A stretch of DNA of 64,000 nucleotides from an uncultured Elusimicrobiales bacterium (lineage in GTDB: Bacteria; Elusimicrobiota; Elusimicrobia; Elusimicrobiales; Elusimicrobiaceae): positions 1 through 64,000 of the forward strand of contig CALVFA010000010.1 of NCBI GenBank assembly GCA_944326725.1, written 5' to 3'. A model generated the notes under the pieces. The model was not told where the DNA came from, made no database searches, and saw only the letters and a program-made list of their open reading frames with translations. The stretch's first letter is position 1. Each line of letters starts with the position of its first letter. Below are positions 3,159 to 63,177 of this stretch, piece after piece. The position numbers and the translations under genes are program-made.

Positions 3159-3671
3159 TTAACTCTCCTTATCTGTGAATATACGCCCCGCAGGGGCGGT
3201 AAAAAAATACGGCACGAAGCGGGTTTCTCTTCCCGCCAAATAAAATTTCTCTCCGGCTTGCCGCGCACCCAAACGCCGCAAATAATGCAGGGCAACGGCG
3301 TAACGCTCATCACACGCGGCGTATAAAAAAGGGTACTGCGCCTGAAACGCCGCCAATACTTTCCGTGACGCACGCCAAAAAGATATCGGGCACTGCTCTA
3401 CGGCCTGCCCCGTCCAGGACCACACACACGCCCGCTGCCCAAGCCAAGTCTGCGCTTCCACCCCAGCCGCTGCGGCTACACGGCCTTTGTACACTAAAGC
3501 CACCGCCTGGGCAGAACGTTTAAAACAAAGCTCCAGCCCCTGCCGCACAGGCAAACGGTACGCGGCCCACATTTCCGCTCTATCCTGTCGGCGCAGTGTG
3601 CGGCTGAGGCCGTCTAAATGTTCTTTACAAAGCGGTTCTAAACTAATATCATGAGATAAGAAACTTTGCAT
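3159..3671 (-). CDS. Internal virion protein, T7 gp13-like (acetyltransferase-like fold)
   Basis: About 170 residues. The N-terminal part (DGLSRTLRRQDRAEMWAAY) and the C-terminal part (ALHYLRRLGARQAGEKFYLAG) resemble the gp13 family of T7-like phages, which look like degenerate GNAT acetyltransferases and are needed for assembly of the internal core. The gene keeps the T7 order, between gp12-like and gp14-like genes, although a plus-strand gene has been inserted upstream. The start is uncertain: ATG at 3671 and ATG at 3689 are both in frame, and neither has a good ribosome-binding site. The 5' end overlaps the promoter and leader of the divergent plus-strand gene, so the two may interfere in transcription. 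Confidence 0.65.
   Translation of the reverse strand: MQSFLSHDISLEPLCKEHLDGLSRTLRRQDRAEMWAAYRLPVRQGLELCFKRSAQAVALVYKGRVAAAAGVEAQTWLGQRACVWSWTGQAVEQCPISFWRASRKVLAAFQAQYPFLYAACDERYAVALHYLRRLGARQAGEKFYLAGRETRFVPYFFTAPAGRIFTDKES
3624..3652 (+). promoter_or_regulatory. Sigma-70-type promoter of the phage moron
   Basis: TTTACA (3624-3629), a 17-bp spacer and TATCAT (3647-3652), each one base from consensus. It lies inside the 5' part of the oppositely oriented gp13-like gene, about 35 bp upstream of the plus-strand gene at 3688, with a good ribosome-binding site between. Confidence 0.65.
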
Positions 3672-3687
3672 ACTAAAAGGAGAAAAC

Positions 3688-4443
3688 ATGATTTGGATTA
3701 TATTACTGCTCCTGCTTGGAGCCGCTGTTCTGTACGGCATTTTCTTTTTGTTTTTTAAATTGGTTTGGGTTTTATGTAAAAAACAGCGCAATTTTTGGCC
3801 GCTGATTTTAGCCGGGGCGGCTACACTGCTGACCGTAGGAGGATTGATTTTTTCCATCGTTTATACCGGCAACAAACTTCTTAAACCGCTGTGGCCTATT
3901 GTTGAAACGATACAGACCCGCACGGAGCCGGTATATGGTTCTCAGCTTTATGTAGACCCCACCTATGGGTTTAGCATTATGCTTTATAACGGTACTGTGT
4001 TAAGCGATTGGATCAACTGGAAAGGAAATTCCGTTTTAGTAGGATTGGACACCAATGTTAAATTTTCCCAACAACAAGACCAGGACGACATACCGTTTAC
4101 TTTTCTGATCATCGGACGTCGGCCGAATGTAGACACCGATCAGGATGCGCATGTTTTGTTGCAACAGCTTATACAACAGATTAATAATTCAGACTCAGAC
4201 GTCCAATTAAGCTTTAGTGACATTAGCCAGGCATATGTCGGTCCCGGAGCCACTGCCGCCCGCGTGACTGGAAGTATTGATAGTGACGGGCCCGTCATTT
4301 TGTTTACGCTGCTGCTTTGCAGACAGGGCAGCGATATGTTTTTTGTAGCCGCAAGCACCTCGCAAAATAACCCGGTAACAGATTACATGATAAACAGTTT
4401 CCGTTTAAAAGGAGCTCCTGTTCTGCCGACTCCCATACAATAG
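3688..4443 (+). CDS. Membrane-anchored moron protein of the prophage
   Basis: 251 residues, read against the direction of the surrounding phage genes. Residues 2-25 and about 38-60 are membrane segments. The remaining ~185 residues form a soluble domain, probably outside the cytoplasm, with the pattern DPTYGFSIMLYNG...W, alternating strands, and a final MFFVAAS...SFRLKG. This recalls the Mog1/PsbP/DUF1795 fold, but that is only a visual impression. AAAAGGAG lies seven bases before the ATG. It has its own promoter and rho-independent terminator, the hallmark of a moron expressed in the lysogen. Such genes often encode superinfection exclusion or change the host surface; no function can be assigned here. 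Confidence 0.8.
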   Translation: MIWIILLLLLGAAVLYGIFFLFFKLVWVLCKKQRNFWPLILAGAATLLTVGGLIFSIVYTGNKLLKPLWPIVETIQTRTEPVYGSQLYVDPTYGFSIMLYNGTVLSDWINWKGNSVLVGLDTNVKFSQQQDQDDIPFTFLIIGRRPNVDTDQDAHVLLQQLIQQINNSDSDVQLSFSDISQAYVGPGATAARVTGSIDSDGPVILFTLLLCRQGSDMFFVAASTSQNNPVTDYMINSFRLKGAPVLPTPIQ

Positions 4444-4478
4444 GCTGTCCGCTCACATTCTATCTAAAAAAGCAGTAA

Positions 4479-4507
4479 AGCGCCCGGCCTCTGCCGGGCG
4501 TTTTTTA
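4479..4507 (+). terminator. Rho-independent terminator after the moron
   Basis: Stem CGCCCGGC / GCCGGGCG with a four-base loop (4481-4500), followed by six T. It ends four bases before the stop codon of the convergent tail tubular B gene. Confidence 0.9.
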
Positions 4508-4510
4508 TCC

Positions 4511-7117
4511 TCAGCAAAGCCGGGTAATAACCGCCAGCAGCGTAACGGGCAGCGGATCATCTTGCACAAAAGTAACAGACGGAAAATACTGATGTGAAGC
4601 TGGCAAAAGGCGGACATAATCGCACGTTTGCAGCGGGGCCGGCTGGGCATAGCTGGAAGCTGCTTCCCCAATCAGGCGGTCCAATTGGCCCTCACCAACG
4701 CCCACTTTCCCGCCGCGGCTGTCTAAGACTTTGAGCATCACCTGCACTGGGCGGCGTTTGCGGTCTTGCTGGGTGCCGTCTGTAAGCATATAATCGGGCG
4801 GCAATGTCTGCATAGTAGCCTGGTAAGGCAGCCCGGCGTGGGCGGTATGCACCGCCGCGGGAAGCACAATTTTGCCGTCCTCTACCACCAGGTCCGTCAG
4901 CGGGCTGCCGTCTGCCAGCACGCAGAGCGTGCACCTTTCCAAATGATCCAGTCCACTTATTTCTGTAAAAGAGTCCGTACTTTTTTTGGACACACTGCAG
5001 TCCAAAAACACTTGATCCTCTGGCTCTTTGCTGGTCAGGCGCGCCAGCAGCCGCTCCACACAGCGCACGCCGTCACGCTCCACCAGCAGCCAGGTTTCGT
5101 CATACCCCTGCGAGGGAATACTGCACACGCTGATAAATTTGCCTTGCGTTTCATGGCGCGTCCACGCAAAAATATCTTCCTCCGGCAAATAAGTCAGCGA
5201 AAGCAATTTGCCGTCCCCCAGCACACACCAAATTAAATTATCCGGCTCCTGCTGGTAGGCCATTTCTTTGATTTCCTGGTTGAAAAACAAATGACGGGCC
5301 CGCAGCGTCAAGTCCCGCCCGGTATAAGAAGCGGTGCTGTACTGATAATAAAAATCCCGCAGCACGCTGCCGCGCGACTGCACAAACAAAGTCCGGTTGC
5401 CCACCACAATAGGCGGCACGCGGCTGGCCCCGCGCTCTCCTTCCTGGTGGATTTCAATGTTATACGGAGTCAGCGCCCCGGAACAACCCAAACTCCACTC
5501 ACTGCCGGCGGTAAACACCAACAGTTTGGCGCCGACGGCTACGGAATTAATAGCATTTAATTTTTTGCCGGAAAGCGTCAGGCTGATGGCGTCGGAATCT
5601 TCCAGCGTGCGCAAATAACCGAAGTCTTCATATTCCCCGGTTTTGGAAAACCAAATGGTCTGCGGCTCTTTATTGCTGCCGGCAAAGCCCAATCTGTCCT
5701 GATAGAAAAACACACAGCTGGGATAACCCGACTGCGGACTAAAAGACCCTTCCGACCAATCAAATGTCCAAGCCTCGTCCTCTCCGGCCGGGCGCTCTAT
5801 GCTCACTTGCATTTTTTGTGCATTGACGTAATTTTGCGTCTTAACAATCCCTTCCTGGTAGAAAGAGTCCGCCTGCAGCACATAGCCCATTTCCCCGCTG
5901 ATTGTCTGACAGCGAATGCGCACATAATACATCTTGGCAGACACTTCCAAACTGCCCAGCGTATTTAAATTCTCTTCGTCTTGGGCTTTGGTAAAATGCT
6001 TCACTTTTTCCCAGGTGACATTGTCGGTAGAAGATTCCAAAACAATTTCCCCGTACCAGCTGCCCGTCGTGCGCAGGCGCCAGTCGCCGCTGGTTTTAAT
6101 CACCTTGGACACATCTTCATAAGCCAGCGTACCGCTTTCAGAAGGGCTTTCCACCCGGTGCCGCAGTGCAAACAATGCCCCCACCTGTGCAGGCGCAAAG
6201 GCGTTAAAATCCGCCTCCAAATACCATTTAGTTTCTCCTTGGCTGATAACCTCCCCGGCATTGCAGCCGCCGCTTAACGCATGCGTAACAATCAAATTCG
6301 GCGGGGCCACAATCCCCTGGCGGTAATAAATCATCAGCTCGGCCCCGTTAAAATCTCCGCCGGTTTCCTTAGGGGACTCTATACGCAGCACCCCGCCCTG
6401 GTTATAGGCTTGGCATCCCTCTGCACTGCAGCGCAGGTTAAAGGCGTATACCACTTCTTCTACATTAAATCCGTAATTGCTGGCGCTATAAAAATGCACC
6501 CCTTTCCAATAGGCCTGAATGAAATAGTTCGGGTAACTGACCGGCAAAAAAGACAGCGTGGCCCGCACCCCTTCAGACACGACGGTATCGCTTTTGCTGA
6601 CCAAGCGCATCTTTTTGGTTTCGTCGGTATTGGCCAGCATAAACGGACCGTCCTTAATGGTCATATCCGAAAGCGTAAAATAGCCGTCTGCGCCGCGCAC
6701 CAGTTTCTTGGGATAATACTTAGGGTGCACCAAAAACAAGGTTTGCTGGTACTGCACATACTGTACATCAGCCAAATCATACTCCGTATACGGGCACTCC
6801 AATTCATACACTAAGCCGTCCTCGTCAAGCAGCGTTCCCGCCGGGGCGTGCACCCGCATATATTCATGGCCCAGCTCCAACACATAGGCCTCTTCTTCCC
6901 CCAGCACAAACGGAATTAAGCGCGCATTTTTATTGCTATATTTAGCACTGGCTACATAGGCCGTACCGGGCCGGTTGGAAATACCCCCTTGCGGGTGGAC
7001 AAAGAAATTACAGGCCGTCTTTAACCAAGCGCCCTGCCCCTGGGCAGAAGCCTGGCTATAGAGGTGCGGGCTTATTTCCCCGCCGGAAAAATTGGTCTGT
7101 ATGGCATGGATAGGCAT
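4511..7117 (-). CDS. Tail tubular protein B, T7 gp12-like (tail nozzle)
   Basis: 868 residues, close to the usual size of about 800. The N-terminus has the family signature: FSGGEISPHLYSQ, ACNFFVHPQGGISNRPGT and the LIPFVLGEEEAYVLELG block. The middle and C-terminal parts contain the beta-rich propeller segments, including YPSCVFFYQDRLGFAGS, found in gp12-type nozzle proteins that extend the portal channel. I chose ATG 7117 because GGAGG lies upstream and the conserved family N-terminus begins there; the frame is open for 18 more codons within the preceding gene. It begins one base after the stop of tail tubular A. Confidence 0.93.
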   Translation of the reverse strand: MPIHAIQTNFSGGEISPHLYSQASAQGQGAWLKTACNFFVHPQGGISNRPGTAYVASAKYSNKNARLIPFVLGEEEAYVLELGHEYMRVHAPAGTLLDEDGLVYELECPYTEYDLADVQYVQYQQTLFLVHPKYYPKKLVRGADGYFTLSDMTIKDGPFMLANTDETKKMRLVSKSDTVVSEGVRATLSFLPVSYPNYFIQAYWKGVHFYSASNYGFNVEEVVYAFNLRCSAEGCQAYNQGGVLRIESPKETGGDFNGAELMIYYRQGIVAPPNLIVTHALSGGCNAGEVISQGETKWYLEADFNAFAPAQVGALFALRHRVESPSESGTLAYEDVSKVIKTSGDWRLRTTGSWYGEIVLESSTDNVTWEKVKHFTKAQDEENLNTLGSLEVSAKMYYVRIRCQTISGEMGYVLQADSFYQEGIVKTQNYVNAQKMQVSIERPAGEDEAWTFDWSEGSFSPQSGYPSCVFFYQDRLGFAGSNKEPQTIWFSKTGEYEDFGYLRTLEDSDAISLTLSGKKLNAINSVAVGAKLLVFTAGSEWSLGCSGALTPYNIEIHQEGERGASRVPPIVVGNRTLFVQSRGSVLRDFYYQYSTASYTGRDLTLRARHLFFNQEIKEMAYQQEPDNLIWCVLGDGKLLSLTYLPEEDIFAWTRHETQGKFISVCSIPSQGYDETWLLVERDGVRCVERLLARLTSKEPEDQVFLDCSVSKKSTDSFTEISGLDHLERCTLCVLADGSPLTDLVVEDGKIVLPAAVHTAHAGLPYQATMQTLPPDYMLTDGTQQDRKRRPVQVMLKVLDSRGGKVGVGEGQLDRLIGEAASSYAQPAPLQTCDYVRLLPASHQYFPSVTFVQDDPLPVTLLAVITRLC

Positions 7118-46442: not shown

Positions 46443-46997
46443 TTAATTGCAGTTTCCTACATTATAGCTGCTTAAACCATAAGTATCACAACTGGTAGAA
46501 GCCGTTCGGTTTTGACAAAACAACTTGCGGCCGCTGTTACGATATTCGGCACACACAGTAGAGTTATAGACTGAAGAAGAAGAATTAGTACAATATTCCT
46601 GTGCTGTATCTCCTAAATATAAAAAGACTGTCCCCTGATTATCCCCACGGCTTCTAGTAGCACAAACAGCATTTGGGTAGGAAGAGGGGTACAAGCTATA
46701 AGAAAAATCAGCACTGTTAGGATTTTTTATATCCAATTGATTAAGACCAAAGCTGTCCGTTGTGTATTGAATCAGGTTCATGCTGTCCATGGTACGCAGC
46801 TTGGATTCCGACAAACGTTTAAGCAACGCGCTCACTTCCGCCAGGCGGGACTTTTCTATCGTGCGCTCATACATAGGCACAGACATGGTAATTAATATCG
46901 CCAAAATCATCACCGCTACCAAAATTTCCATCATTGTAAAACCGCCCCGGTCATACATGCGGCAGAATTTCTTTAATATGCTGTTCTTTTTCAACAT
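46443..46997 (-). CDS. Type IV prepilin-like protein
   Basis: 184 residues with a leader of about 18 residues ending DRGG; the mature part starts FTMMEILVAVMILAILITM. The Ser/Asn/Tyr-rich globular domain has at least six cysteines, ending SCDTYGLSSYNVGNC. GAGAGG lies seven bases before ATG 46997; an in-frame TTG five codons earlier overlaps the previous stop. Third gene of a three-pilin operon. Confidence 0.85.
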   Translation of the reverse strand: MLKKNSILKKFCRMYDRGGFTMMEILVAVMILAILITMSVPMYERTIEKSRLAEVSALLKRLSESKLRTMDSMNLIQYTTDSFGLNQLDIKNPNSADFSYSLYPSSYPNAVCATRSRGDNQGTVFLYLGDTAQEYCTNSSSSVYNSTVCAEYRNSGRKLFCQNRTASTSCDTYGLSSYNVGNCN

Positions 46998-47008
46998 ACC
47001 AATTCCTC

Positions 47009-47464
47009 TCAATTTACCCCATAGATATCACAGGCACCACTGCCCGAATCGCTGCAATTATAAAAATTTAGTCCATTATAATCCATCTTGACGCCCACAT
47101 AACGTCCGGCGGTTTTCTCAATACCTACTAAACAATTACCCTTAAGCGTATATTTAAACCCTGCACCGGAAATAAAATTGCTGGCATCATTTAAAGTAAA
47201 TCCGCTGGGCAACAAATCCGTCCCGCCGATATCCAAACGCGAAAGTCTTTTTACCTCGGCAGGCAAAGCGGTATAGCTTTCCTCTCCCCATTCCGCCACC
47301 AGCCGCTGGCAGGAATCATGCAAAGACTTAGCCATGACTTCCGCTTTTGTGAAGCGGCCCTTTTCCACTACTTTGCGGTATTGCGGCAAAGCAATGGAAG
47401 ACAAAATACCGATAATGACCACCACGGCCAGCACTTCTGTTAACGTAAATCCTCTTTTACCCAT
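47009..47464 (-). CDS. Type IV prepilin-like protein
   Basis: 151 residues, start MGKRGFTLTEVLAVVVIIGI with Glu at position 5. C-terminal features GNCLVGIEK and NCSDSGSGACDIYG resemble the neighbouring pilins. GAGG precedes ATG 47464; the frame continues upstream but inside the previous gene. Second gene of the three-pilin operon. Confidence 0.87.
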   Translation of the reverse strand: MGKRGFTLTEVLAVVVIIGILSSIALPQYRKVVEKGRFTKAEVMAKSLHDSCQRLVAEWGEESYTALPAEVKRLSRLDIGGTDLLPSGFTLNDASNFISGAGFKYTLKGNCLVGIEKTAGRYVGVKMDYNGLNFYNCSDSGSGACDIYGVN

Positions 47465-47471
47465 ATTATCC

Positions 47472-47942
47472 TCACTCATTCCAAGCAGCAGCTCCCCACA
47501 CCGTACACGCCCGGGAAGCTTCCCCCGTAGTGGGAGCCGTGCACAAAAAATATCTGCCGTCAAAGATAATCATAGCCCCCTGATAGCTGCCCTTAACGGA
47601 GGTAGCAGTGATATTATGGCCTAATTCATAGGCAAAATTATCTGTAAGCAATATGGTGCCTGGGCCGGAGAAGGTTCCTTTTACCGTAATATCTAATTTA
47701 GGGAATTTGGCTATTCCGGCATTTACCGCTTCTGCACAATTTGCTTTTTGATTCTCCCAGGCCAGCCGTTCACACGAATCATAGATGGAACGCACAAGCG
47801 TCAAGGCTTCTGCCACACGGGCCCGCTCTACAGAGCGGCGGTACTGCGGAAGCGCGATGGAAGATAAAACTCCCAAAATCAATACCACAACCAATAATTC
47901 TATTAAAGTAAACCCTTCTTTGTGTTTGGACAAAATATTCAT
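47472..47942 (-). CDS. Type IV prepilin-like protein
   Basis: 156 residues. The leader ends KHKEG, the mature part starts FTLIELLVVVLILGVLSS. Cysteines occur as SCERLAWENQKANC, FLCTAP and RACTVWG. It is the first gene of the three-pilin operon, read from a good promoter in the region shared with guaC. The downstream gene follows after seven bases. Confidence 0.87.
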   Translation of the reverse strand: MNILSKHKEGFTLIELLVVVLILGVLSSIALPQYRRSVERARVAEALTLVRSIYDSCERLAWENQKANCAEAVNAGIAKFPKLDITVKGTFSGPGTILLTDNFAYELGHNITATSVKGSYQGAMIIFDGRYFLCTAPTTGEASRACTVWGAAAWNE

Positions 47943-50017: not shown

Positions 50018-50148
50018 GGAATTTTTACCGGACTATTCAGATATATTGAGAAGGACTTTTGGCTTAATTTGCCCCGCCCAAACTATTTATCAAAACAAAA
50101 ATATTGCCAAAGCAAAAGACGCTCTGCTCCAATTTATATAGTCCCAAA

Positions 50149-50178
50149 AAAACGGCCGGAGCAAGCTCCGGCCGTTTT
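50149..50178 (-). terminator. Terminator of the PAS-repeat gene
   Basis: ACGGCCGGAGC / GCTCCGGCCGT with A and T runs on both sides, 16 bases after the stop codon of the minus-strand gene; it can act in both directions. Confidence 0.85.
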
Positions 50179-50191
50179 TAAAAGTACAGTC

Positions 50192-53100
50192 TCATTTCTT
50201 TCTTACACCGATAAGACCGTATCCTTCCACATCACCTTTAATGTCTTTTATCAGGAACACATCCCACCCGGTAGCGGTGTACTTACCGTGTTCATCTACC
50301 AAGTCCAATTTTACCTGGAAAGCATTGCCTGAGGCATTTTTATTGGCGGCCTCAAACATACGCCGGCTACCGTCTGCTATACGGATAAACTCATCAAAGA
50401 ATTCTCTTTCTTCCACCGTTTGGCGCCGCCGGCCAGTAGAAGCCAAGAACACTTCGTTGGCATATTTAACGCGATATTGCAAATCCAACACCACTGCAGG
50501 CAAGTCCACATATTCTAAGGTACGGATAAAACTTTGGGCCGTCTCCCCCAGTGTTTTGCTGGCCTCACGCAATTCAATGCGCAAGCTCAAAATGCGCGAC
50601 ATAATACCAATCAATTCTTCTGCCCCCTCCACGAAATGAGCCTTAGGTGCACGCGCAGCAAAACACAAAGCACCGGCCACTTTGCCTCCGACATATAATG
50701 GAGCGGCAATTAAAGAGCCAAAGTCTTTTTCTTTATGGATACAGCGTTTGCAGTTGGTATTAGCCAAATCCGGAAAGACTACTACATTATCGTCACGCAC
50801 ATCAAAAAGGCATTCCTCCACCGGAAACACCATATACCGCTCTATATTAAATGGATTGGGCGTGGCATATACTACAGTCTGTTCATCGGGATTAGATTCC
50901 CGAAAGCGCAGTACAATCCCCACATCAGACTGGAATACTTTTTTGCCAAAATCCAAGATTTTATCCACTTGCTGCGTAATGGTAGACTTATTCTCATTGC
51001 TGATGTCATAAAGCTGGCGGATATTACGTTCGTGTATTCGGCGCTCGGTTACATCACGCAGCCAAATAACCACCTCATCTTGCCCGCTAATAGGAGTGCA
51101 TACCGCCTCAAAGAAACGCTGTTTTCCTCCGTAGTCCCAGTCAAACTCAAAGGTTGTATTGATATTGACGCTGGTCGCTTCTTTAATAGCGAAAATTTCT
51201 TTCGCAGCCGCATCTTCCGGCCAATACTGGCTGGGATATTTACCCATGAATATTTCCCGGGCTTGGTCCATATCCATGTAAGGCACGTTAGAAGACACTT
51301 CTAATACTAAGCCCTCTCCGTTTGTTTTTAAATAAAGTCCCGGCAAAGACTGCCGCACGCTGCGCAATTCTAATGCCGCGCGGGAATCATGGGCAATACG
51401 CTCCAATAAGTCGGACAAATCGGTTACCAACGCCAACACGGCGTTTTTGCCAGGGATATCCAAAGGCGTCAACGTCACAGAAGTTTCTATTTTGCGGCCG
51501 TCTTTGGTAAACAAAGAAGCCCCAAAAGACGCCCGGCCTTTTTCCTCCAATGTTTTGGCCGCGCGCTGGAAAACGGACTCTATTTTGTCTTTATCTGCTC
51601 CGTCGGAAGCCATAAACAAGCGGGAAAAGGACATAGACGTCAACTCATCATGAGTATAGCCAATCAGCTGGGATAAAAATTTATTGGCCTGCTCTATCCG
51701 TCCAAATTTACCGTTTTCATAATGCACAGAAAACACGGCTCCGTCGGTTGCTTCCAGCAAGGCATTTAACTGGGCCGATCTTTCCTGTAAAATATGCATA
51801 ATTTGTTTCTGAAACGCTATATTATGGAAAATAAACACATAGCTCCCATTGGCCGCACGCAAAGCGCTTACACGCACCGGAGAAGTCTCCAAACCGCTGG
51901 CCAAACAAATAGAATATTCGCGGTTTTCTATGGCTCCTTTATTCACTAATATTTTCAAGTCGGCCATTAAGAGCGGAATGCTGTCTTGGCTAAAGAGCTT
52001 AATAATTTCCTGGCCTTTCAGTTCTTCCGGCTGCAATTGGCACAACTTGCAAAACAGCTCGTTGCAGGAAGAAATCTTAAATTTGGAAGAACATACCACA
52101 TAAGGCTCCGTATTCGGCAGCAAAACGGCAGGGACCTGCGGCGGACGCGGCTTATTGGTATTTTTTTGCTTAATCTTATTTCCCTCTTCCGGCGGCTGAG
52201 AAGAGCCTCTTTCCCTTCGGTCCAATGTGACCAAATAATCCGCCTCTACCGTACCGTCCTGGCAATCACGCCGGTTAAACGGCTCCAAAGTCACATGGAG
52301 CAACATCTTTCCCTCTCCGTGAATACGCCCAGGGAATTTGGCCGCTGCTCTGTCAAAGTCAAATGTATAGTCCATATAGGCACTTTCCCCCCGACGTACT
52401 TTGCGGCGCACGGACAATGTTAAAGCGGGGCGGATATAAACATTGCGGTAGAAGTTGCGGTCATTTTCAGACAGGTGGAACATATCCCGCGCCGCTTTGT
52501 TCATCACATTAATGTAGCCCTTGTGATTAAGTACAAAAGCAGGCAATACTCCCCGTTCAAATACATTCTTAAACTTTTCGCGTTCTCCGCGCATCTCACG
52601 TATATTTTTATTAAACGCAGTCACATCGCGCAAGAAAGCGATGACGATACGCCGTCCTAAATATTTGGAAGCCATAGCGGCAAATTCCACTTCTGACGTT
52701 TCGCCTGATTTTTTGAGTAAATGCAATTGTACCGGTTCAGAAGCGTTATCTAAGCCGTTAATAACCGACTCATATTTATCCTTTGCAAAGATCTGATGGT
52801 CTGCCGCCACAAAATCCAACAATGGACGGCGGGCTATCTCTTCTGCCGCTTCATATCCCAGCACTTTGCAGGCCGCCCGGTTAGCATAGATGATTTTATA
52901 ATCTTCTAAAATCAAGATGCCTTCCCGTGCGTTTTCCACCAGCAGAGAATTCTTTTCTCCCGCTTCCCGAATTTGCTTTTCCATCTTGGTTTTAGCCGTA
53001 ATATCTTCAGATACATTAAGCAGATAATCCGGCGTACCATCTACTTTATACAAAGGCGTTTTGACTGTATGCATAATTTTGACGCCTTCATTGGGAGTAG

Positions 53101-55567
53101 AAATCAACTCTTGCGGAATATTGAGTTCCCGGCGGCTTTCAAAGACTTTATTGTCTGATTCTCTCACAAATTCCGCCTGTTCTTTGGTAATATCCGTACG
53201 ATAATTGTCTTTGCCAATTACATCTTTGGCCGATACACCAAAGAGGTCCTCACTCTTCTTATTCCACACAATATATTCGCCCGTATAGCGTTTTACGGAC
53301 AAAGCAATAGGCAAATTATCCACCACGTTTTGCAAGAAATTTTTAGATTCGCGGATTTCTTTTTCCTGCTGTTTTGTCTGTGTAATATCATTAGCAATAG
53401 TCAACACCATCAGAGGTTTTCCCGAAGCGTCAAAAACAGGGGCTTTTGTTAAATGCAAAAGAATTTTTTTACCGTCTTGGCGTTCATATTCTTCCTCGGT
53501 GATTTCCACAATTTTGCCGTCTTTAAAAATTTGGTCTTCCCGTTGGTTATAACCTCTTTCATCTTCTGGAGAGGTCATATCTCCCGGGAATAATTTTTCC
53601 GCCTCTTTATTAAAGAAACAAACTTGATGATTGACATCATAGGCATAAATAGCCACCGGCGCATTGTCCAAAATTGTCTGCTGCAAATTTTGGGCTTCGG
53701 TTAATTTCCTGTCCTTTTCCCTTTTATCAGTAATGTCTTCCGCAATAGAAAGCATCATAAACGGCTTACCTTCTTTATCATAGACAGGCACTTTGATTAA
53801 ATGCAGCCATATTTTCTTTCCGGTTTTAGTAATATATTCTTCTTCCGGGATATCCAAAGTTTTTCTTTGGCGGAACATCTCTTTTTCCCGTTCTCCATAG
53901 AAATCGTTTGACTCCTCGTAAACGGCTTCTTCCGGAAACATTTCCATCGCTTTTCGGTTTACAAAGGCTTCCGTATCATTAACGCCGCGCGCATAAATAG
54001 CCAACGGAGCATTGTCCAAGATAGCTTGTTGGAAGTTTTTGGCTTCCATTAGACGGCGTTCTTGTTCTTTCTTCTCAGTTACATCTTCCACCATGGTAAT
54101 CACAAATTCTGGGTTTCCCTCTGCATCTGATACGGGAACTTTAACCATATTAAGCAACAGACGCTTACCGTTTTCTTTTACATATTCCTCATCCGGGATT
54201 TCCAAAGGTTTACCCGACTCAAGTACCTGGGCTTCTCTATTCAAGTAACCGCTTACTTGCTCCTGTGTCTCATGAGGCAAAGACCCTTGTTCGTCAAAAT
54301 GATTGCCAGACGTAGCAAAAATTTGTTCACACTGTTTATTACGCAGCAACATTTTCCCCTCTTTGGTGCGGGCATACAAGCCAATAGGAGCATTATCTAC
54401 AATAGCCGTCAAGAAACTGTTTGCTTTAACAATTTCTTGTTCTTGCTGGCGTCTTTTGGTTACATCCTCCACTATGGTAAGCACCAACGGTTCCGGCCCG
54501 GCATGTTTGAGCGGGACTTTAATCATATGAATGATTTTTTCATCACCATCATGGCTCAAATACACTTCATCAGGATATTCTCTAATCTTCCCCTCTTCCA
54601 AAATTTCTCTTTCCCGGGCATTATATTGTCGGATAATATTAGGATCTTGTTTGGGGTGCGGAGAATTGGCATATTTAGGATCTGCTTCTGCAAAAACCAC
54701 TTGGCTTTGTCTATTAAAAAATGTCATTTCCCCGTCAATCGTACGCGTGTAAATACCCAATGGCACATTATCTAAAATCCCCTGCAGCAAATTACGGGTC
54801 TGTAACAAATCTTCTTCCTGCATGCGGCGGGCGGTAATGTCTTCATAAACCGTCAAAACGGTTATTAATTTCCCGGCAGCATCAAACGTGGGCACTTTTG
54901 TCACGGACAAAGTAATTTCTTTGCCTTCATTATTGCGAAAGCTCATCTGACAGCCGGTATGATTTTGTTTTTTATCCCGCACCTCTTTATCCAACATATC
55001 TAATGCGCTGGATAACTGGGCCGGCAACAATTCTGTTACCTTACGTCCGATGGCAGCGGTTTCCGTACAACCAAACATTTTTTCGGCTTTTTCATTCCAC
55101 ACTAAACATAGGCCGCGCCGATCCTGTACCGTAACAGCAAAAGGGTAGTTCTCTACAATAGATTTAAAAAACGCTTTTTCCTTTACCAACTGTCGATATT
55201 GAGGAGCGGAATCAAAGCTGAGGATAATATATTTTGTTCCAGGCACCCGGGAAGCGCTGACGTTCATATACAACGCTTCCATATCCTTGGTAACCATTTC
55301 TTTCATTAAAGAGGCAGGGGCATTTTTTTTCAACAACGTCTGAATGTCAGCAGCTGTTAACCCATATTTTGAGAGAGAAGTATTTTTTAATGCAGAGACA
55401 CTAAACCCGGACACAGCACTTATACGCTTATTAGCAAGCAAGATCTTCCCTTCTTCATCTGCCAAACAGGCCGCACACGGCAGCAAATCCAACAAAGCTT
55501 CCAACTGTTGCAAAGATTCCGGAGTTTCATCATTTTTAGAAAAGAAAGAAAGAATTTTGTTTACCAT
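50192..55567 (-). CDS. Giant multi-PAS sensory protein with one GAF and no visible output domain
   Basis: 1,791 residues. I count about thirteen PAS or PAS/PAC units: near 18, 135, 256, 380, 505, 625, 745, 875, 1000, 1165, 1280, 1410 and 1690. Units at 256-740 are near-repeats of about 120 residues with NAP(L/V/I)AIYAR-like starts and IKVP(V/L)...EDIT ends. A GAF domain lies at about 1530-1680 and carries NCKRCIHKE, a cysteine pair that could bind metal or sense redox state. No histidine kinase, GGDEF, EAL, HAMP, methyl-accepting or DNA-binding segment is seen, and no membrane helix. It probably senses several small molecules or acts as a scaffold. GAGGA precedes the ATG. The gene is monocistronic. 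Confidence 0.9.
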   Translation of the reverse strand: MVNKILSFFSKNDETPESLQQLEALLDLLPCAACLADEEGKILLANKRISAVSGFSVSALKNTSLSKYGLTAADIQTLLKKNAPASLMKEMVTKDMEALYMNVSASRVPGTKYIILSFDSAPQYRQLVKEKAFFKSIVENYPFAVTVQDRRGLCLVWNEKAEKMFGCTETAAIGRKVTELLPAQLSSALDMLDKEVRDKKQNHTGCQMSFRNNEGKEITLSVTKVPTFDAAGKLITVLTVYEDITARRMQEEDLLQTRNLLQGILDNVPLGIYTRTIDGEMTFFNRQSQVVFAEADPKYANSPHPKQDPNIIRQYNAREREILEEGKIREYPDEVYLSHDGDEKIIHMIKVPLKHAGPEPLVLTIVEDVTKRRQQEQEIVKANSFLTAIVDNAPIGLYARTKEGKMLLRNKQCEQIFATSGNHFDEQGSLPHETQEQVSGYLNREAQVLESGKPLEIPDEEYVKENGKRLLLNMVKVPVSDAEGNPEFVITMVEDVTEKKEQERRLMEAKNFQQAILDNAPLAIYARGVNDTEAFVNRKAMEMFPEEAVYEESNDFYGEREKEMFRQRKTLDIPEEEYITKTGKKIWLHLIKVPVYDKEGKPFMMLSIAEDITDKREKDRKLTEAQNLQQTILDNAPVAIYAYDVNHQVCFFNKEAEKLFPGDMTSPEDERGYNQREDQIFKDGKIVEITEEEYERQDGKKILLHLTKAPVFDASGKPLMVLTIANDITQTKQQEKEIRESKNFLQNVVDNLPIALSVKRYTGEYIVWNKKSEDLFGVSAKDVIGKDNYRTDITKEQAEFVRESDNKVFESRRELNIPQELISTPNEGVKIMHTVKTPLYKVDGTPDYLLNVSEDITAKTKMEKQIREAGEKNSLLVENAREGILILEDYKIIYANRAACKVLGYEAAEEIARRPLLDFVAADHQIFAKDKYESVINGLDNASEPVQLHLLKKSGETSEVEFAAMASKYLGRRIVIAFLRDVTAFNKNIREMRGEREKFKNVFERGVLPAFVLNHKGYINVMNKAARDMFHLSENDRNFYRNVYIRPALTLSVRRKVRRGESAYMDYTFDFDRAAAKFPGRIHGEGKMLLHVTLEPFNRRDCQDGTVEADYLVTLDRRERGSSQPPEEGNKIKQKNTNKPRPPQVPAVLLPNTEPYVVCSSKFKISSCNELFCKLCQLQPEELKGQEIIKLFSQDSIPLLMADLKILVNKGAIENREYSICLASGLETSPVRVSALRAANGSYVFIFHNIAFQKQIMHILQERSAQLNALLEATDGAVFSVHYENGKFGRIEQANKFLSQLIGYTHDELTSMSFSRLFMASDGADKDKIESVFQRAAKTLEEKGRASFGASLFTKDGRKIETSVTLTPLDIPGKNAVLALVTDLSDLLERIAHDSRAALELRSVRQSLPGLYLKTNGEGLVLEVSSNVPYMDMDQAREIFMGKYPSQYWPEDAAAKEIFAIKEATSVNINTTFEFDWDYGGKQRFFEAVCTPISGQDEVVIWLRDVTERRIHERNIRQLYDISNENKSTITQQVDKILDFGKKVFQSDVGIVLRFRESNPDEQTVVYATPNPFNIERYMVFPVEECLFDVRDDNVVVFPDLANTNCKRCIHKEKDFGSLIAAPLYVGGKVAGALCFAARAPKAHFVEGAEELIGIMSRILSLRIELREASKTLGETAQSFIRTLEYVDLPAVVLDLQYRVKYANEVFLASTGRRRQTVEEREFFDEFIRIADGSRRMFEAANKNASGNAFQVKLDLVDEHGKYTATGWDVFLIKDIKGDVEGYGLIGVRKK

Positions 55568-55660: not shown

Positions 55661-55690
55661 AAAAAATCCCTGTCGGATAACCGACAGGGG
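55661..55690 (-). terminator. Rho-independent terminator of the lipoprotein gene
   Basis: CCCTGTCGG-ttat-CCGACAGGG followed by ATTTTTT on the minus strand. Confidence 0.88.
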
Positions 55691-55717: not shown

Positions 55718-56293
55718 CTATCGCTGGGTGTGAGTGCAAGTTACTTCTGATCCCACAAAAAACAACTGATTGCGCTTATATACGCAAGACACCAACGTAG
55801 ACTCCTTGACCCCGCTAGCCGGATCCGGCGGCAAATAGCAGTCTATGCGTTTGCAGTCATAGGTTTCCCGGCATTGTGGAAAAGAAGAAGTAGGAAAATT
55901 GACCAAATACCAAGAAAATTCCAAATTATAATTCAACGCCTGCAAAAAAGCCTCACATGTTGGCTCCATAATAGGGCACTGGGGCTGGGGACTGACCGCC
56001 TGACGCGCTACTCTTTCCTGAAGCAGCGTGTAGCGCTGGTTATTAATGGGGCTGCCTTGCGCCAAATAAACATCAAAGCAGCTATAGCCATCTTCCTGCT
56101 TGCGCGAACAACTATATTGCTTCAAAATATCATTTCCCGGGCAGGTGTCCTCTACTTCTTCCGCGTCCGTACCTAAGTAGTAAGGGGTTTCCCTGTCCGT
56201 GGTCACGCGGTAATGCGGTGCTCCCTCGGTCCCCATGCCGGCACAGGCACCCAATAACACACAGCCGCCCAATAACACAAACCATTGTTTCAT
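55718..56293 (-). CDS. Cysteine-rich lipoprotein of unknown function
   Basis: 191 residues. Residues 1-16 form a lipoprotein signal with lipobox LLGAC (Cys17), followed by AGMGTEGAPHYR. The mature chain holds ten further cysteines, for example YSCSRKQEDGYSC, QCPIMEPTC, QCRETYDCKRIDC and SCVYKRNQ, enough for five disulfides, so it is surely extracytoplasmic. I recognise no family. The start at 56293 is set by the lipobox; there is no good ribosome-binding site, and the frame remains open upstream. Confidence 0.65.
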   Translation of the reverse strand: MKQWFVLLGGCVLLGACAGMGTEGAPHYRVTTDRETPYYLGTDAEEVEDTCPGNDILKQYSCSRKQEDGYSCFDVYLAQGSPINNQRYTLLQERVARQAVSPQPQCPIMEPTCEAFLQALNYNLEFSWYLVNFPTSSFPQCRETYDCKRIDCYLPPDPASGVKESTLVSCVYKRNQLFFVGSEVTCTHTQR

Positions 56294-56522
56294 GGTTACA
56301 GCATACCAGAAGAACTGGCCCCCCGTCAACAACCCAAAAAAGATTATTTTGTCTACAAGCTTTCGACCCGTGCAAGCACTTGTTCCGCTCCAAGCGTTTA
56401 TACTTCCTCTCTCACTCCAAAGCTGACCTCTCTTGATTTTCCCAAAATATACCCCGCCGGCAGAACACATCTAAGCGATACCGGCGGGACAACAAAGCAG
56501 ACAGAAATACCGCTGATAAGAC

Positions 56523-58508: not shown

Positions 58509-58991
58509 CTAACAGGATGTCACAGGATTGGCATACCCCAGACTTTTGCAAAAATCTTGTCCATCGGCCGTAAAAGCCAAACATTTTTCTTCCGGCACTT
58601 TGCCTACAGCATTGGCTTCTTGATATACGCAAATACCATAACTTCTATCCACACGCTGCACTCTGACATATCTTGAGGAAGATATATCTATTGTAAAGTC
58701 GTTAATAGTATATGAAGATCCAGTGGCCGCTTCCACTTCCAAAGGCAACAGGCTAAATAAAGTGGGCATAGATGCTCCGCTTCCATCATATAGATGGTCA
58801 TAATAATAAACATCTCTGGCAGCAGCCACCTGATGTGCCAGAGAACGGGCATCTGTAAATTTAGCCCGGTCTATAGAGCGCCGGTAAGAGCCTAAAGCTA
58901 TACCTGCCAAAATAGCAATTATTACCACCACCGCCATTAATTCTGCCAACGTAAATGCGCGGCGGTCCAAACAGTTAAAAATTTTTTGCAT
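58509..58991 (-). CDS. Type IV prepilin-like protein with Ala at the cleavage site
   Basis: 160 residues. The leader ends DRRA and the mature protein starts FTLAELMAVVVIIAILAG, so the usual Gly before the cleavage site is Ala, a tolerated but less common residue. The C-terminal part has ICVYQEANAVGKVPEEKC and FCKSLGYANPVTSC, a pattern shared with major pilins of this kind. AAAGGAG precedes the ATG. It is monocistronic. Confidence 0.85.
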   Translation of the reverse strand: MQKIFNCLDRRAFTLAELMAVVVIIAILAGIALGSYRRSIDRAKFTDARSLAHQVAAARDVYYYDHLYDGSGASMPTLFSLLPLEVEAATGSSYTINDFTIDISSSRYVRVQRVDRSYGICVYQEANAVGKVPEEKCLAFTADGQDFCKSLGYANPVTSC

Positions 58992-59087: not shown

Positions 59088-59117
59088 GAGAGAAATACCC
59101 CCCTCTAAGGAGTGTTT

Positions 59118-61649
59118 ATGCCTGATCTACAAGTCTTTGCCCCGACCGACGGAAAACTCGTTCCATTGGAACAAGTGCCTGACCCAGCCTTTAGTGAACA
59201 TATGCTCGGCGATGGGATAGCCATTGCCCCCTCCTGTGGTTTTACAGCAGCCCCCTTTGACGGAAAGGTTATTAGCATTCACAAAGCTTTACACGCCGTA
59301 GTGATTGGGAGGCCGGGCCTAGAAGTGTTAATTCATGTCGGTGTAGAAACCGTCAACTTGCAAGGAAAAGGATTCAAGGCATTGATCAAAGCAGGAGACG
59401 AAGTCAAAAAAGGCCAACACTTAACAGAATTTGACCCAGACTTTCTAGCACAAAATGCCCCCAGCAATTTGGTTATCTTAATTGTTACCTCTCCAGATGA
59501 AGCCGTATTAGATAAAAACAATATCTCCCAAGTAAAAGCAGGCCAAGATGCCGTATTTTCTCTCTCATGCGAAAATGCAACAGGCGAAGATACGCAATCC
59601 CCAACAACCGATTGGCTTAACTCCCGCTCGGTTACGATACCTAACTTAAATGGTCTGCACGCCCGCCCGGCAGGACGCCTAGCGGAAGCCGCAAAACAAT
59701 TCCCTTTTCCCATACAACTGGTTTGTGCAGAAAATGCCGCTGACGCTAAAAGTCTAGTCGCCATTATGGGGCTTTCTCTTGCCCGCGGCAGCGAAGTGTG
59801 CTTGCGCGCCCCCAAAGACCAGGCCGAAGCGGGTCGCGCCCTGGAAGATTTGGCCCGTCTGCTGGAAAGCGGCCTAGGCGAAGCCCCGACAGAAGAAACG
59901 GCAGATAGCGTCTGCTCTACAGATAAGCCCTGTTTATGCAACAATACTTCCACACCAGACCTCTCCTCGGCCGCAGTGCTCAAAGCATTGACCGCCTGTA
60001 CAGGAATTGCCCGGGGAAAAGCCTTTTTGTTTACCGCGGCTGATGTGTCCTTTGAAGAAAACGCCTCCGACAGCACCGCCGAACAAATCCTCTTAACCCA
60101 AGCGCTGCACGACACGGAATCAGACTTCAAAGCAGCTATCCTCTCCGCTCCGAGCAAAGCAGCCAAGGAAATTTTGCAAGCGCATGCGGAGCTTTTAAAA
60201 GATCCCTTTTTAGCCCAGCAGGCGGCCCTGCATATCCAGCATGGTAAAAGTGCGCCGTATGCTTTTAACGAAGCCATTCGCGCCAGCATTGACGTATTGA
60301 AAAAAACAAAAAACCGCTTTTTGCTTGAACGCATCGCCGATTTTAAAGATTTGCGCCGCCGGGTACTTGTCAAATTAACCGGAGCACAAACTAAAAAACC
60401 GGACTTTCCGGAAGGCTGCATCGTCATAGCAGATGAACTTCTTCCTTCCGACTTGGCTCTCTTTGACAGCCGGGTGCGGGGAGTCTTGCTGGCTTATGGT
60501 TCCCCCACGGCACATGTGTCCATTCTGCTTAGAAATATGGGGCTTCCCTCTCTGGTGGGAGCCGGCGAATGTGTGCTTAATATAGAAAGTGGCGCAGAAC
60601 TGGGTTTAAACGCCACAGAGGGATTGCTTTATGTACGCCCAAACGCCCAGCAAATATCCCAACTAGACGAAGCCTTGCGCAAAGAGCAAACGGCCCGGGA
60701 GCAAAACCAAAAAGCCGCCCAGGAAAAAGCACTTACCCAAGACGGAGTGCACATTCACGTCTGCGGCAATGCTTCCAATGAACGGGAAGCTTTGTCTGCC
60801 GCAGAAAATGGGGCAGATGGATTAGGCCTAGTGCGCACTGAATTTTTATTTTTCCAAGGCAAAGAACCTCCTTCTGAAGAGCGGCAGTTTATGCTCTATC
60901 AAAATATAGCCGCCGCTTTGCATGGCAAGCTGGTTACCCTGCGCACCTTGGACGTAGGTGGGGACAAGCCCGTCCCCTATATGCCGCTTCCGCCGGAGGA
61001 AAACCCCATTGTCGGTCTGCGCGGCGTGCGCAATTACAGTGTATACCGCGACATTTTCCTTTCCCAAATCCGGGCCATGCTGCGCGTACAACCGGCCGGA
61101 GCGGTGCGAATCATGCTGCCAATGGTGACTTTTGTAGACGAGCTGTTGGAATACAAAAAAATTATTGCCCAGGAAAAGGAAATATTGGGCATTACCGCCC
61201 CGGTAGAATTGGGTATTATGGTAGAAGTACCTTCCGCCGCGCTGATGGCGGCCCAGTTTGCCGCCCACGCGGACTTCTTTTCTTTGGGAACCAATGATTT
61301 AACCCAATATACCCTAGCCATAGACCGCGGACATAAAACTTTGTGCGCCCGGGCGGACCATTTACACCCCAGTGTACTTAAACTGATTGCGCTCACTTGC
61401 CAAGGCGCCCAAAAACACCACCGGCCCGTAGCCGTCTGCGGCGCTATGGCAGGGGACCAGCAAGCCGTACCATTGCTTATTGGTCTGGGGGTAACGGAAC
61501 TTGCTGTCGGGGCCAATGCTATTGCACAAATCAAAGCCCAAGTGCGCACGCTGGACAAAACACACTGCGCACAAGTGGCCCAACAAGCGTGCGAAATGGA
61601 AAGTGCGGCCCAAGTGCGGCAACTGATTAAAAAAGAATTTGGTGTATAA
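59118..61649 (+). CDS. IIA-HPr-enzyme I fusion of the sugar phosphotransferase system
   Basis: 843 residues in three modules. Residues about 1-150 are a glucose/GlcNAc-type IIA domain with active-site VLIHVGVETVNL. Residues about 170-255 are HPr with GLHARPAGRLAEAA (phosphorylated His) and the Ser-46-like DAKSLVAIMGL. Residues about 290-843 are enzyme I: swivelling His in SPTAHVSILLRNMGLPSLVG, then LRTLDVGGDKPVPY, FSLGTNDLTQY and the catalytic Cys in VCGAMAGDQQA. A single chain can thus pass phosphate from phosphoenolpyruvate to the IIB domain of the permease encoded next. AAGGAG lies five bases before ATG 59118. Confidence 0.95.
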   Translation: MPDLQVFAPTDGKLVPLEQVPDPAFSEHMLGDGIAIAPSCGFTAAPFDGKVISIHKALHAVVIGRPGLEVLIHVGVETVNLQGKGFKALIKAGDEVKKGQHLTEFDPDFLAQNAPSNLVILIVTSPDEAVLDKNNISQVKAGQDAVFSLSCENATGEDTQSPTTDWLNSRSVTIPNLNGLHARPAGRLAEAAKQFPFPIQLVCAENAADAKSLVAIMGLSLARGSEVCLRAPKDQAEAGRALEDLARLLESGLGEAPTEETADSVCSTDKPCLCNNTSTPDLSSAAVLKALTACTGIARGKAFLFTAADVSFEENASDSTAEQILLTQALHDTESDFKAAILSAPSKAAKEILQAHAELLKDPFLAQQAALHIQHGKSAPYAFNEAIRASIDVLKKTKNRFLLERIADFKDLRRRVLVKLTGAQTKKPDFPEGCIVIADELLPSDLALFDSRVRGVLLAYGSPTAHVSILLRNMGLPSLVGAGECVLNIESGAELGLNATEGLLYVRPNAQQISQLDEALRKEQTAREQNQKAAQEKALTQDGVHIHVCGNASNEREALSAAENGADGLGLVRTEFLFFQGKEPPSEERQFMLYQNIAAALHGKLVTLRTLDVGGDKPVPYMPLPPEENPIVGLRGVRNYSVYRDIFLSQIRAMLRVQPAGAVRIMLPMVTFVDELLEYKKIIAQEKEILGITAPVELGIMVEVPSAALMAAQFAAHADFFSLGTNDLTQYTLAIDRGHKTLCARADHLHPSVLKLIALTCQGAQKHHRPVAVCGAMAGDQQAVPLLIGLGVTELAVGANAIAQIKAQVRTLDKTHCAQVAQQACEMESAAQVRQLIKKEFGV

Positions 61650-61668
61650 ACTTCAACTGGAGAACTTC

Positions 61669-63177
61669 ATGCAAAACCTAAAAAATACATTTGCCCCCCT
61701 CGGACGGGGACTGGTTAAACTGGGCAAAGCCCTGATGTTGCCCATTGCCGTCTTGCCTATTGCCGGTCTGTTGCTGCGCTTAGGCCAGCCGGACTTGCTT
61801 AATATCGCTTTCATGGCGGCTGCCGGGCAGGCAGTATTTACCAATTTGCCTGTCATTTTTGCTCTAGGCGTAGCCATTGGCTTTGCCGATGAAAATCATG
61901 GTGCCGCGGCACTGGCGGCTTTTGTAGGCTATGTGATTTTGACGGCCTCCTTAGGCGTATTGGACGACGATATTGATATGGGCGTACTGGGCGGTATTAT
62001 CGTGGGCGTTACTGCCGGGTTGCTGTACAATAAATACAAAAGCATTAAGCTCCCTTCTTATTTGGCTTTTTTCGGCGGACGGCGTTTTGTGCCGATTGTA
62101 ACAGGCGCCGCCTGTTTGCTTATTGCCGCGGCGGCTTATTTTGTTTGGCCGCCGATTGCGCGCGTAATTGGAGCCTTTGGCGACTGGACGATTACTTCAG
62201 GCAACATTGGCCTTTTCTTTTATGGCATCGCCAACCGCCTGCTTATACCGCTGGGCCTGCACCACATTTTAAACAATTTAGTTTGGTTTCAATTTGGCAG
62301 TTTTGAAGTAGTCAAAGAAGGCGTAGTCACCATTGTACAAGGCGACTTGTCCCGCTTTTTTGCCGGAGACCCAATGGCCGGCCCCTTCATGGCGGGCTTT
62401 TTCCCAATTATGATGTTTGGCTTGCCGGCGGCGTGTTTGGCCATGATTGCCACTGCCAAAACCGCACGCAAAAAAGCCATCAGTGGGTTACTGCTGTCCA
62501 TGGCGTTAACTTCGTTTTTAACCGGCATCACAGAGCCTATTGAGTTCTCTTTTATGTTTTTGGCGTTCCCGCTTTATGTACTGCATTCGCTGCTTACGGG
62601 CTTGTCTTTAGTCATCATGAACATATTGGAGATTAAACTCGGCTTTACTTTCTCCGCCGGGCTATTTGACTATTTGCTCAGCTACGGCTTGGGCAAAAAC
62701 GGCCTCTATTTAATCCCGGTAGGCATTGTGTATGCGTTGCTGTATTATTTCTTGTTCAAATGGGCTATCGTGAAATTCAATTTAACCACCCCCGGACGCG
62801 AACCAGAAGAAACGGACCAAGAGGCCGCCCCGCCAACGCCCGCTGTACAAGCTGCGCCGCAAGCCGCAGCGGCTGGACCGGTCGCGGCAGCCAGCACAGA
62901 AGCCCCTAAAACAGAAATATCCGTCCCAGCCGCAGATGACCAAAGCCGCGGCGCCAACTACCTGCGCGGTTTGGGCGGGAAAGACAACATTAAAACCATT
63001 GACGCCTGCGCCACGCGCTTGCGCCTGGAGGTGGTCAATGCCGACGCTGTTGATACGCCCGCCCTTAAGGCCTTAGGGGCGCGCGGCGTGGTCAAAGCCG
63101 CCGGCGGGGCCGTACAGGTTATTATCGGGCCCGAAGCGGACCTCATATCGGACGAGATTAAAAAATACTTAAAATAA
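61669..63177 (+). CDS. nagE: N-acetylglucosamine-type PTS permease, IIC-IIB
   Basis: 502 residues. The IIC domain (about 1-370) has some ten membrane helices and family motifs LMLPIAVLPIAGLLLRLG, GLHHILNNLVWFQFG and FLTGITEPIEFSFMF. An Ala/Pro-rich linker (about 385-420) leads to the IIB domain with phospho-Cys in TIDACATRLRLEV. A IIA domain is lacking here but present in the fusion encoded upstream, so the two proteins make a complete system. GGAG lies seven bases before ATG 61669. The next gene, nagB, follows after one base and supports GlcNAc rather than glucose. Confidence 0.93.
   Translation: MQNLKNTFAPLGRGLVKLGKALMLPIAVLPIAGLLLRLGQPDLLNIAFMAAAGQAVFTNLPVIFALGVAIGFADENHGAAALAAFVGYVILTASLGVLDDDIDMGVLGGIIVGVTAGLLYNKYKSIKLPSYLAFFGGRRFVPIVTGAACLLIAAAAYFVWPPIARVIGAFGDWTITSGNIGLFFYGIANRLLIPLGLHHILNNLVWFQFGSFEVVKEGVVTIVQGDLSRFFAGDPMAGPFMAGFFPIMMFGLPAACLAMIATAKTARKKAISGLLLSMALTSFLTGITEPIEFSFMFLAFPLYVLHSLLTGLSLVIMNILEIKLGFTFSAGLFDYLLSYGLGKNGLYLIPVGIVYALLYYFLFKWAIVKFNLTTPGREPEETDQEAAPPTPAVQAAPQAAAAGPVAAASTEAPKTEISVPAADDQSRGANYLRGLGGKDNIKTIDACATRLRLEVVNADAVDTPALKALGARGVVKAAGGAVQVIIGPEADLISDEIKKYLK

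What the first reader, a model, noticed from the sequence alone, without database searches (positions are those of the whole stretch)
50192..55567. A 1,791-residue protein of about thirteen PAS domains and one GAF without an output domain
Most PAS arrays end in a kinase, cyclase or transcription factor. Here the chain ends in a PAS domain and nothing else is visible. Four consecutive units are near-copies of about 120 residues, showing internal duplication. The GAF carries a Cys pair (NCKRC). It may be a cytosolic multi-ligand scaffold passing signals to partner proteins, a kind of sensor that is little described.
Basis: partly seen in the sequence, partly recalled or inferred. Interest (0 to 1): 0.66.

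Follow-up and report, generated by a model that had tools for sequence, protein, structure and literature searches.

The report
Giant PAS sensor without output domain
A gut bacterium of the phylum Elusimicrobiota makes a very large cell-interior protein built only of signal-sensing modules, conserved throughout its host-associated relatives; it probably works by handing signals to a separate enzyme, most likely a histidine kinase that lost its own sensor in the same lineages.

Summary
On the minus strand, 50192-55567 encodes 1,791 residues: thirteen PAS domains and one GAF, with no output domain by Pfam, NCBIfam, motif search or AlphaFold models. Terminators flank the gene and a convergent gene follows, so no output domain was lost to a frameshift. 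The gene is not a one-off. A form of it was found in 87 of 88 genomes of four related genera (gut Elusimicrobiaceae); no ortholog examined has an output domain; the two deeper genera of the family lack it. PAS number varies widely through internal gains and losses. The most conserved unit is PAS7; PAS9 is the only unit in every complete ortholog. The best partner lead is genomic. A soluble histidine kinase that is GAF-PAS-HisKA-HATPase in relatives without the array is cut to HisKA-HATPase (about 250 residues), in the same gene context and with intact catalytic motifs, in nearly all array-bearing genomes. I read the array as a multi-input sensor acting in trans, most likely on that kinase. The link rests on one evolutionary event and is untested biochemically.

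The parts
50192..55567 (-). complete gene of the PAS/GAF array protein, 1,791 aa
   Evidence: orthologs without stops in tens of genomes
55202..55516 (-). PAS1 (residues 18-122); preceded by a conserved N-terminal peptide MxNKxFSFFSK
54827..55183 (-). PAS2 (129-247)
54452..54805 (-). PAS3 (255-372), duplicated block 3-6
   Evidence: 35-39% identical to units 4-6
54071..54430 (-). PAS4 (380-499), duplicated block 3-6
53723..54049 (-). PAS5 (507-615), duplicated block; missing in many orthologs
   Evidence: 50% identical to unit 6
53375..53701 (-). PAS6 (623-731), duplicated block; mostly confined to the closest relatives
52991..53353 (-). PAS7 (739-859), the most conserved unit (about 51-62% identity across genera; His833 invariant)
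52613..52969 (-). PAS8 (867-985)
52214..52591 (-). PAS9 (993-1118), the only unit present in every complete ortholog examined
51809..52120 (-). PAS10 (1150-1253), after a low-confidence linker at about 1119-1149
51410..51787 (-). PAS11 (1261-1386)
51035..51382 (-). PAS12 (1396-1511)
50564..51022 (-). GAF (1516-1668)
   Evidence: Pfam GAF E 1e-7
50735..50812 (-). probable metal or Fe-S site in the GAF: C1586-x19-C1606-x2-C1609-x-H1611
   Evidence: each residue kept in 92-98% of the 50 aligned sequences; ligands swap or vanish together
50195..50542 (-). PAS13 (1676-1791), C-terminal, protein ends at the end of the domain
50146..50177 (-). intrinsic terminator directly after the stop codon (AACGGCCGGAGC TT GCTCCGGCCGTT, T run)
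   Evidence: read from the sequence
55668..55689 (-). intrinsic terminator between the upstream lipoprotein-like gene and the array gene; the array is therefore read as monocistronic

Best explanation
It is a cytosolic, modular multi-input sensor protein that carries no output of its own and acts in trans. Shown: thirteen PAS and one GAF, no output domain in any ortholog examined, stand-alone gene, found only in one clade of host-associated Elusimicrobiaceae, unit number gained and lost freely, GAF with a conserved C-C-C-H set. Also shown: a soluble histidine kinase (G000:C28:9361-10122, 254 aa, HisKA-HATPase only) whose counterpart in relatives without the array carries an N-terminal GAF-PAS sensor has lost that sensor in the array-bearing genera, and kept its catalytic motifs and gene context. 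Inferred: the array took over the input side of this kinase (and perhaps of others); ligands or redox states bound by individual PAS/GAF units change the packing of the linking helices, and the array, probably dimeric, docks on the kinase and sets its kinase/phosphatase balance. The GAF probably holds a metal ion or Fe-S cluster and reports redox, oxygen or metal state.
For: No output by profile, motif or model. Stand-alone transcription unit. A form of the array in 87 of 88 genomes of genera g1, g12, g15, g16, none in g13, g14. Stand-alone sensorless kinase in 84 of these 88 (65 of 66 in g1, one of them cut by a contig end, 2 of 3 in g12, 17 of 18 in g15, 0 of 1 in g16), against 520-539 aa GAF-PAS kinases in 5 of 5 array-lacking relatives tested, with the same upstream gene, intact H, N and G boxes and Pfam support. 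MutS tree: array carriers form one clade, 100/100; the kinase trait sits one node inside it. The genome's other kinases have a sensor, a transmembrane segment or a receiver. Conserved C-C-C-H set.
Against: The array/kinase correlation is in effect one event each on neighbouring branches, so chance or general genome reduction can explain it. The two genes are not linked. Genus g16 (one genome, 92% complete) has an array but no such kinase was found. G104 keeps only PAS9-13, G071 only PAS1-9, and the kinase persists with both, so no single half of the array is tied to it. The C-terminal GAF-PAS of the array is not specially related to the GAF-PAS the kinase lost: the profile does not recover that kinase in array-lacking genomes, and the colinear hhalign match (83%) is what two GAF-PAS modules would give anyway. 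No physical or genetic interaction data exist.
Confidence: 0.4

Rival explanations
1. The array acts in trans on other partners (the 1-TM kinase, the receiver-kinase, the diguanylate cyclases or a PAS-bearing kinase) through PAS-PAS heterodimers; the sensor loss of the soluble kinase is unrelated genome reduction.
For: The genome has four GGDEF proteins, three single-domain receivers and several other kinases. One small kinase has a PAS domain. The correlation with the soluble kinase is a single event.
Against: Nothing in gene order or co-occurrence favours any of these; a kinase of the length of the 1-TM one is equally short in relatives without the array (314-315 aa in G039 and G050).
Confidence: 0.33
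2. The array is a non-signalling binding or storage protein (cofactor, metal or metabolite buffer), or its PAS units mainly serve as a structural filament.
For: No output; unit number free to vary; a probable metal site in the GAF.
Against: PAS and GAF units are joined by helices in the usual signalling arrangement. Very uneven conservation, with PAS7 far above the rest, fits specific functions better than bulk storage.
Confidence: 0.12
3. It is a decaying relic of a large PAS histidine kinase that lost its kinase in a shrinking genome.
For: Relatives with larger genomes carry PAS arrays ending in HisKA-HATPase, for example ORFs of 1,399-1,997 aa in G093/G094. Some orthologs are cut (G071, G021, G076).
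Against: Open frames of 800-1,800 codons persist at 23-87% identity in dozens of species; near-universal in four genera. Relics decay faster than that.
Confidence: 0.08

Closest known systems
Multi-PAS (hybrid) sensor histidine kinases, such as those of free-living Elusimicrobiota (loci L087-L097)
   Same: Long chains of PAS units joined by helices; PAS7 resembles PAS domains of these kinases best
   Different: No HisKA/HATPase or receiver in the array or in the orthologs examined
NreA of staphylococci (GAF protein without output that works with the NreB kinase; PMC4601167)
   Same: A sensor protein without output, thought to act on a separate cytosolic kinase
   Different: [quoted passage not shown] here 14 domains, unlinked gene
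AirS of S. aureus (Fe-S kinase, C-x7-C-x-C-x17-C; PMC4601167)
   Same: A sensor with a conserved cysteine cluster in its sensory part
   Different: Spacing here is C-x19-C-x2-C-x-H and there is no kinase
DosP, PpsR, bacteriophytochromes, LOV-histidine kinase, FixL, MmoS (best structural matches)
   Same: PAS and GAF folds linked by helices (MmoS, entry 3ewk, also by sequence)
   Different: From general knowledge all of these carry an output (phosphodiesterase, HTH or kinase); no LOV Cys motif in the array

Membership tests
PAS-array sensor histidine kinase | several PAS domains | tested here: met
PAS-array sensor histidine kinase | HisKA or HisKA_3 plus HATPase_c, with H, N and G boxes | tested here: not met
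   also absent in divergent orthologs
PAS-GGDEF/EAL, adenylate cyclase or PAS transcription factor | catalytic or DNA-binding output domain | tested here: not met
NreA-like stand-alone sensor for a kinase | sensor without output | tested here: met
NreA-like stand-alone sensor for a kinase | GAF protein encoded next to its kinase | tested here: not met
NreA-like stand-alone sensor for a kinase | physical action on the kinase in trans | not testable with these tools
   genomic correlation only
AirS-type [2Fe-2S] sensor | C-x7-C-x-C-x17-C | tested here: not met
   motif from PMC4601167
metal or Fe-S binding GAF in general | three or four conserved Cys/His ligands that vary together | tested here: met
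   C1586, C1606, C1609, H1611 kept in 92-98%; g12 has a single Cys in place of the C1609/H1611 pair; g16 loses all four
metal or Fe-S binding GAF in general | bound metal, ligands in contact | not testable with these tools
   model coordinates not available; no assay
LOV photoreceptor | GxNCR motif | tested here: not met

The most novel reading that the evidence does not exclude
A split two-component system specific to gut Elusimicrobiaceae: one giant, output-free PAS/GAF array collects many cytosolic signals and serves, in trans, a soluble kinase that gave up its own sensor domains in the same lineages; units are added and dropped without touching the kinase gene.
Probability: 0.35. Interest if true: 0.75.

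Novelty: new variant of a known kind. Interest (0 to 1): 0.5.

Why it matters
Sensory domains are usually studied fused to their output. A lineage that keeps a near-universal, roughly 90-200 kDa sensor array without output, and at the same time strips the sensor from a soluble kinase, offers a natural experiment on how sensing can be moved to a separate protein during genome reduction, and gives a testable partner pair. One of the carriers may be the cultured Elusimicrobium minutum (see noticed items), so the test may be practicable.

Tried and rejected
Hidden or frameshifted output: rejected. An operon partner: neighbours differ between genera; in genus g1 only a small lipoprotein-like gene stays next to the array, in either orientation. 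Transfer of the kinase's own GAF-PAS onto the C-terminus of the array: not supported (against a weak hint). C-terminal GAF-PAS as the docking part: weakened by G071, G035 and G076, which have lost the GAF (and in G071 the last PAS) while the kinase stays. LOV flavin site: motif absent. Relative outside the family: the only one, G175, is a GAF hybrid histidine kinase. Anti-phage system: no PADLOC match. Literature on output-free PAS arrays or on PAS proteins of Elusimicrobiota: four searches gave nothing on the point, but the library is open-access only. Orthologs in genome contigs: ten loci, of which nine are true orthologs.

Full report
Observation. The frame is on the minus strand, 50192-55567, 1,791 codons. 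Profile searches see only PAS families and one GAF. I place thirteen PAS units and one GAF (order PAS1-12, GAF, PAS13). AlphaFold models built from 48 and 26 related sequences agree: 871-1791 with mean pLDDT 83, 1-880 with 77. Both show repeats of PAS/GAF strand-helix order joined by helices, apart from a low-confidence linker near 1120-1149. Their best matches in the PDB are PAS/GAF sensors: DosP, PpsR, bacteriophytochromes, LOV-histidine kinase, FixL, MmoS. The low TM-scores and the low pTM (0.36, 0.33) mean that domain folds are reliable and their arrangement is not. Units 3-6 are the most alike, 35-50% identity, against 15-35% for other pairs. There is no transmembrane segment (highest 19-residue hydropathy 1.6).

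No lost output. Kinase, GGDEF and EAL motifs are absent. The stop codon is followed within 20 bases by a strong intrinsic terminator and then by a convergent FKBP gene. Upstream another terminator separates it from a lipoprotein-like gene. Divergent orthologs from other genera, L082 and L084, again give only PAS and GAF.

Distribution. The named relatives are uncultured Elusimicrobiales/Elusimicrobiaceae, including Candidatus Avelusimicrobium excrementipullorum and a yak-rectum assembly. In the whole-genome set a form of the array was found in 87 of the 88 genomes of genera g1, g12, g15 and g16; the one without a hit, G073, is a 66%-complete assembly and was searched with the GAF-PAS13 profile only. 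It is absent from g13 and g14 of the same family and, at E 1e-12 with that profile, from the rest of the phylum sample, except a GAF hybrid kinase in G175. In a MutS tree the array carriers form one clade with support 100/100, g16 branching first; g13 and g14 have long branches, so their mutual position is unsure. The array-bearing genomes are small (about 0.9-1.8 Mb); g13 and g14 have 2.2-2.3 Mb and 17-19 HisKA matches against about 5.

Modularity. Full arrays have 13, 12, 11 or 10 PAS; g16 has 8 PAS and GAF in 1,196 aa; G104 has PAS9-13 and GAF in 803 aa; G076 and G035 jump from PAS9 to PAS13 without PAS10-12 and GAF; G071 stops after PAS9; in G021 PAS13 is a separate reading frame. G035 is read from a contig end, and some of these could be assembly faults. 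PAS9 is the only unit found in every complete ortholog. PAS7 is by far the best conserved.

GAF site. C1586, C1606, C1609 and H1611 are kept in 92-98% of 50 aligned sequences whose identity to the window protein in this part falls to 22-35%. In g12 the C1609/H1611 pair is replaced by one nearby Cys, and in g16 all four are gone. Joint change is what ligands of one site do. Zinc, iron or an Fe-S cluster cannot be told apart here. The spacing differs from AirS, C-x7-C-x-C-x17-C (PMC4601167).

Partner. The genome holds about six histidine kinases: two membrane kinases with extracytoplasmic parts, one with a single membrane helix, a receiver-kinase, a PAS-HisKA_3 kinase and one soluble protein of 254 aa with HisKA and HATPase only. 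The best match of the last one in genomes without the array is 520-539 aa with a GAF and a PAS-like stretch in front (g13, g14 and three genomes of the next family; GAF by Pfam, the PAS part by its sequence and the colinear alignment, not by Pfam), behind the same about 290-aa gene. In array-bearing genera the frame is 241-288 codons stop to stop, with the same upstream gene. It was found in 65 of 66 g1 genomes (in G075 cut by a contig end), 2 of 3 g12 and 17 of 18 g15 genomes, not in the single g16 genome; the misses in g1, g12 and g15 are in incomplete assemblies (66-84%). All catalytic boxes are intact. So the sensor was lost on the branch just inside the one where the array appears. This is suggestive but is one event. 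The array's own GAF-PAS end is not a transplanted copy of the lost one. Whether the lost GAF-PAS is encoded elsewhere in the genome was not tested separately; a search with the whole array found no second relative of it in the own genome.

Judgement. The finding is real, and stronger than described: an output-free array kept across a whole host-associated clade. The mechanism (trans action on the sensorless kinase) is my best guess at 0.4. Output-free PAS proteins as such are known to exist, from general knowledge, so I file it as a new variant of a known kind.

Noticed in passing
window 55718-56470 (-): A small lipoprotein-like gene without Pfam match stays next to the array gene in 32 loci of the genus, but in either orientation.
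   Followed up: partly
L053, L067, L073, L082 next to the array gene: Genes of a secreted protein family with a signal peptide and a short N-terminal motif like TYHPSKYGNYE / AFHPVPSGKYAQL neighbour the array in several genera.
   Followed up: partly
window 50192-55567, residues 1-11: Conserved N-terminal peptide MxNKxFSFFSK before PAS1 in g1 and g12; possibly a membrane-binding amphipathic helix (hydrophobic moment within the top 6.5% of the protein's windows, so not strong).
   Followed up: partly
L054 7228-7644 (-) and 7645-12015 (-): In G021 the last PAS is a separate reading frame after an in-frame TAA; real split or sequencing error not settled.
   Followed up: partly
window 46443-47942 and 58509-58991 (-): Four type IV pilin-like genes; such genes are repeated around the locus in 34 relatives.
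   Followed up: no
G000:C54 (L058) 3369-7077: A membrane histidine kinase, a receiver-histidine kinase and a NarL-type regulator in a row beside Flp/Tad pilus-like genes.
   Followed up: no
window 59112-61649 and 61639-63177 (+): Apparent fused phosphotransferase gene (EIIA-HPr-EI) followed by a PTS sugar permease gene; judged by eye only.
   Followed up: no
Its array gene is 1,543 aa.
   Followed up: no
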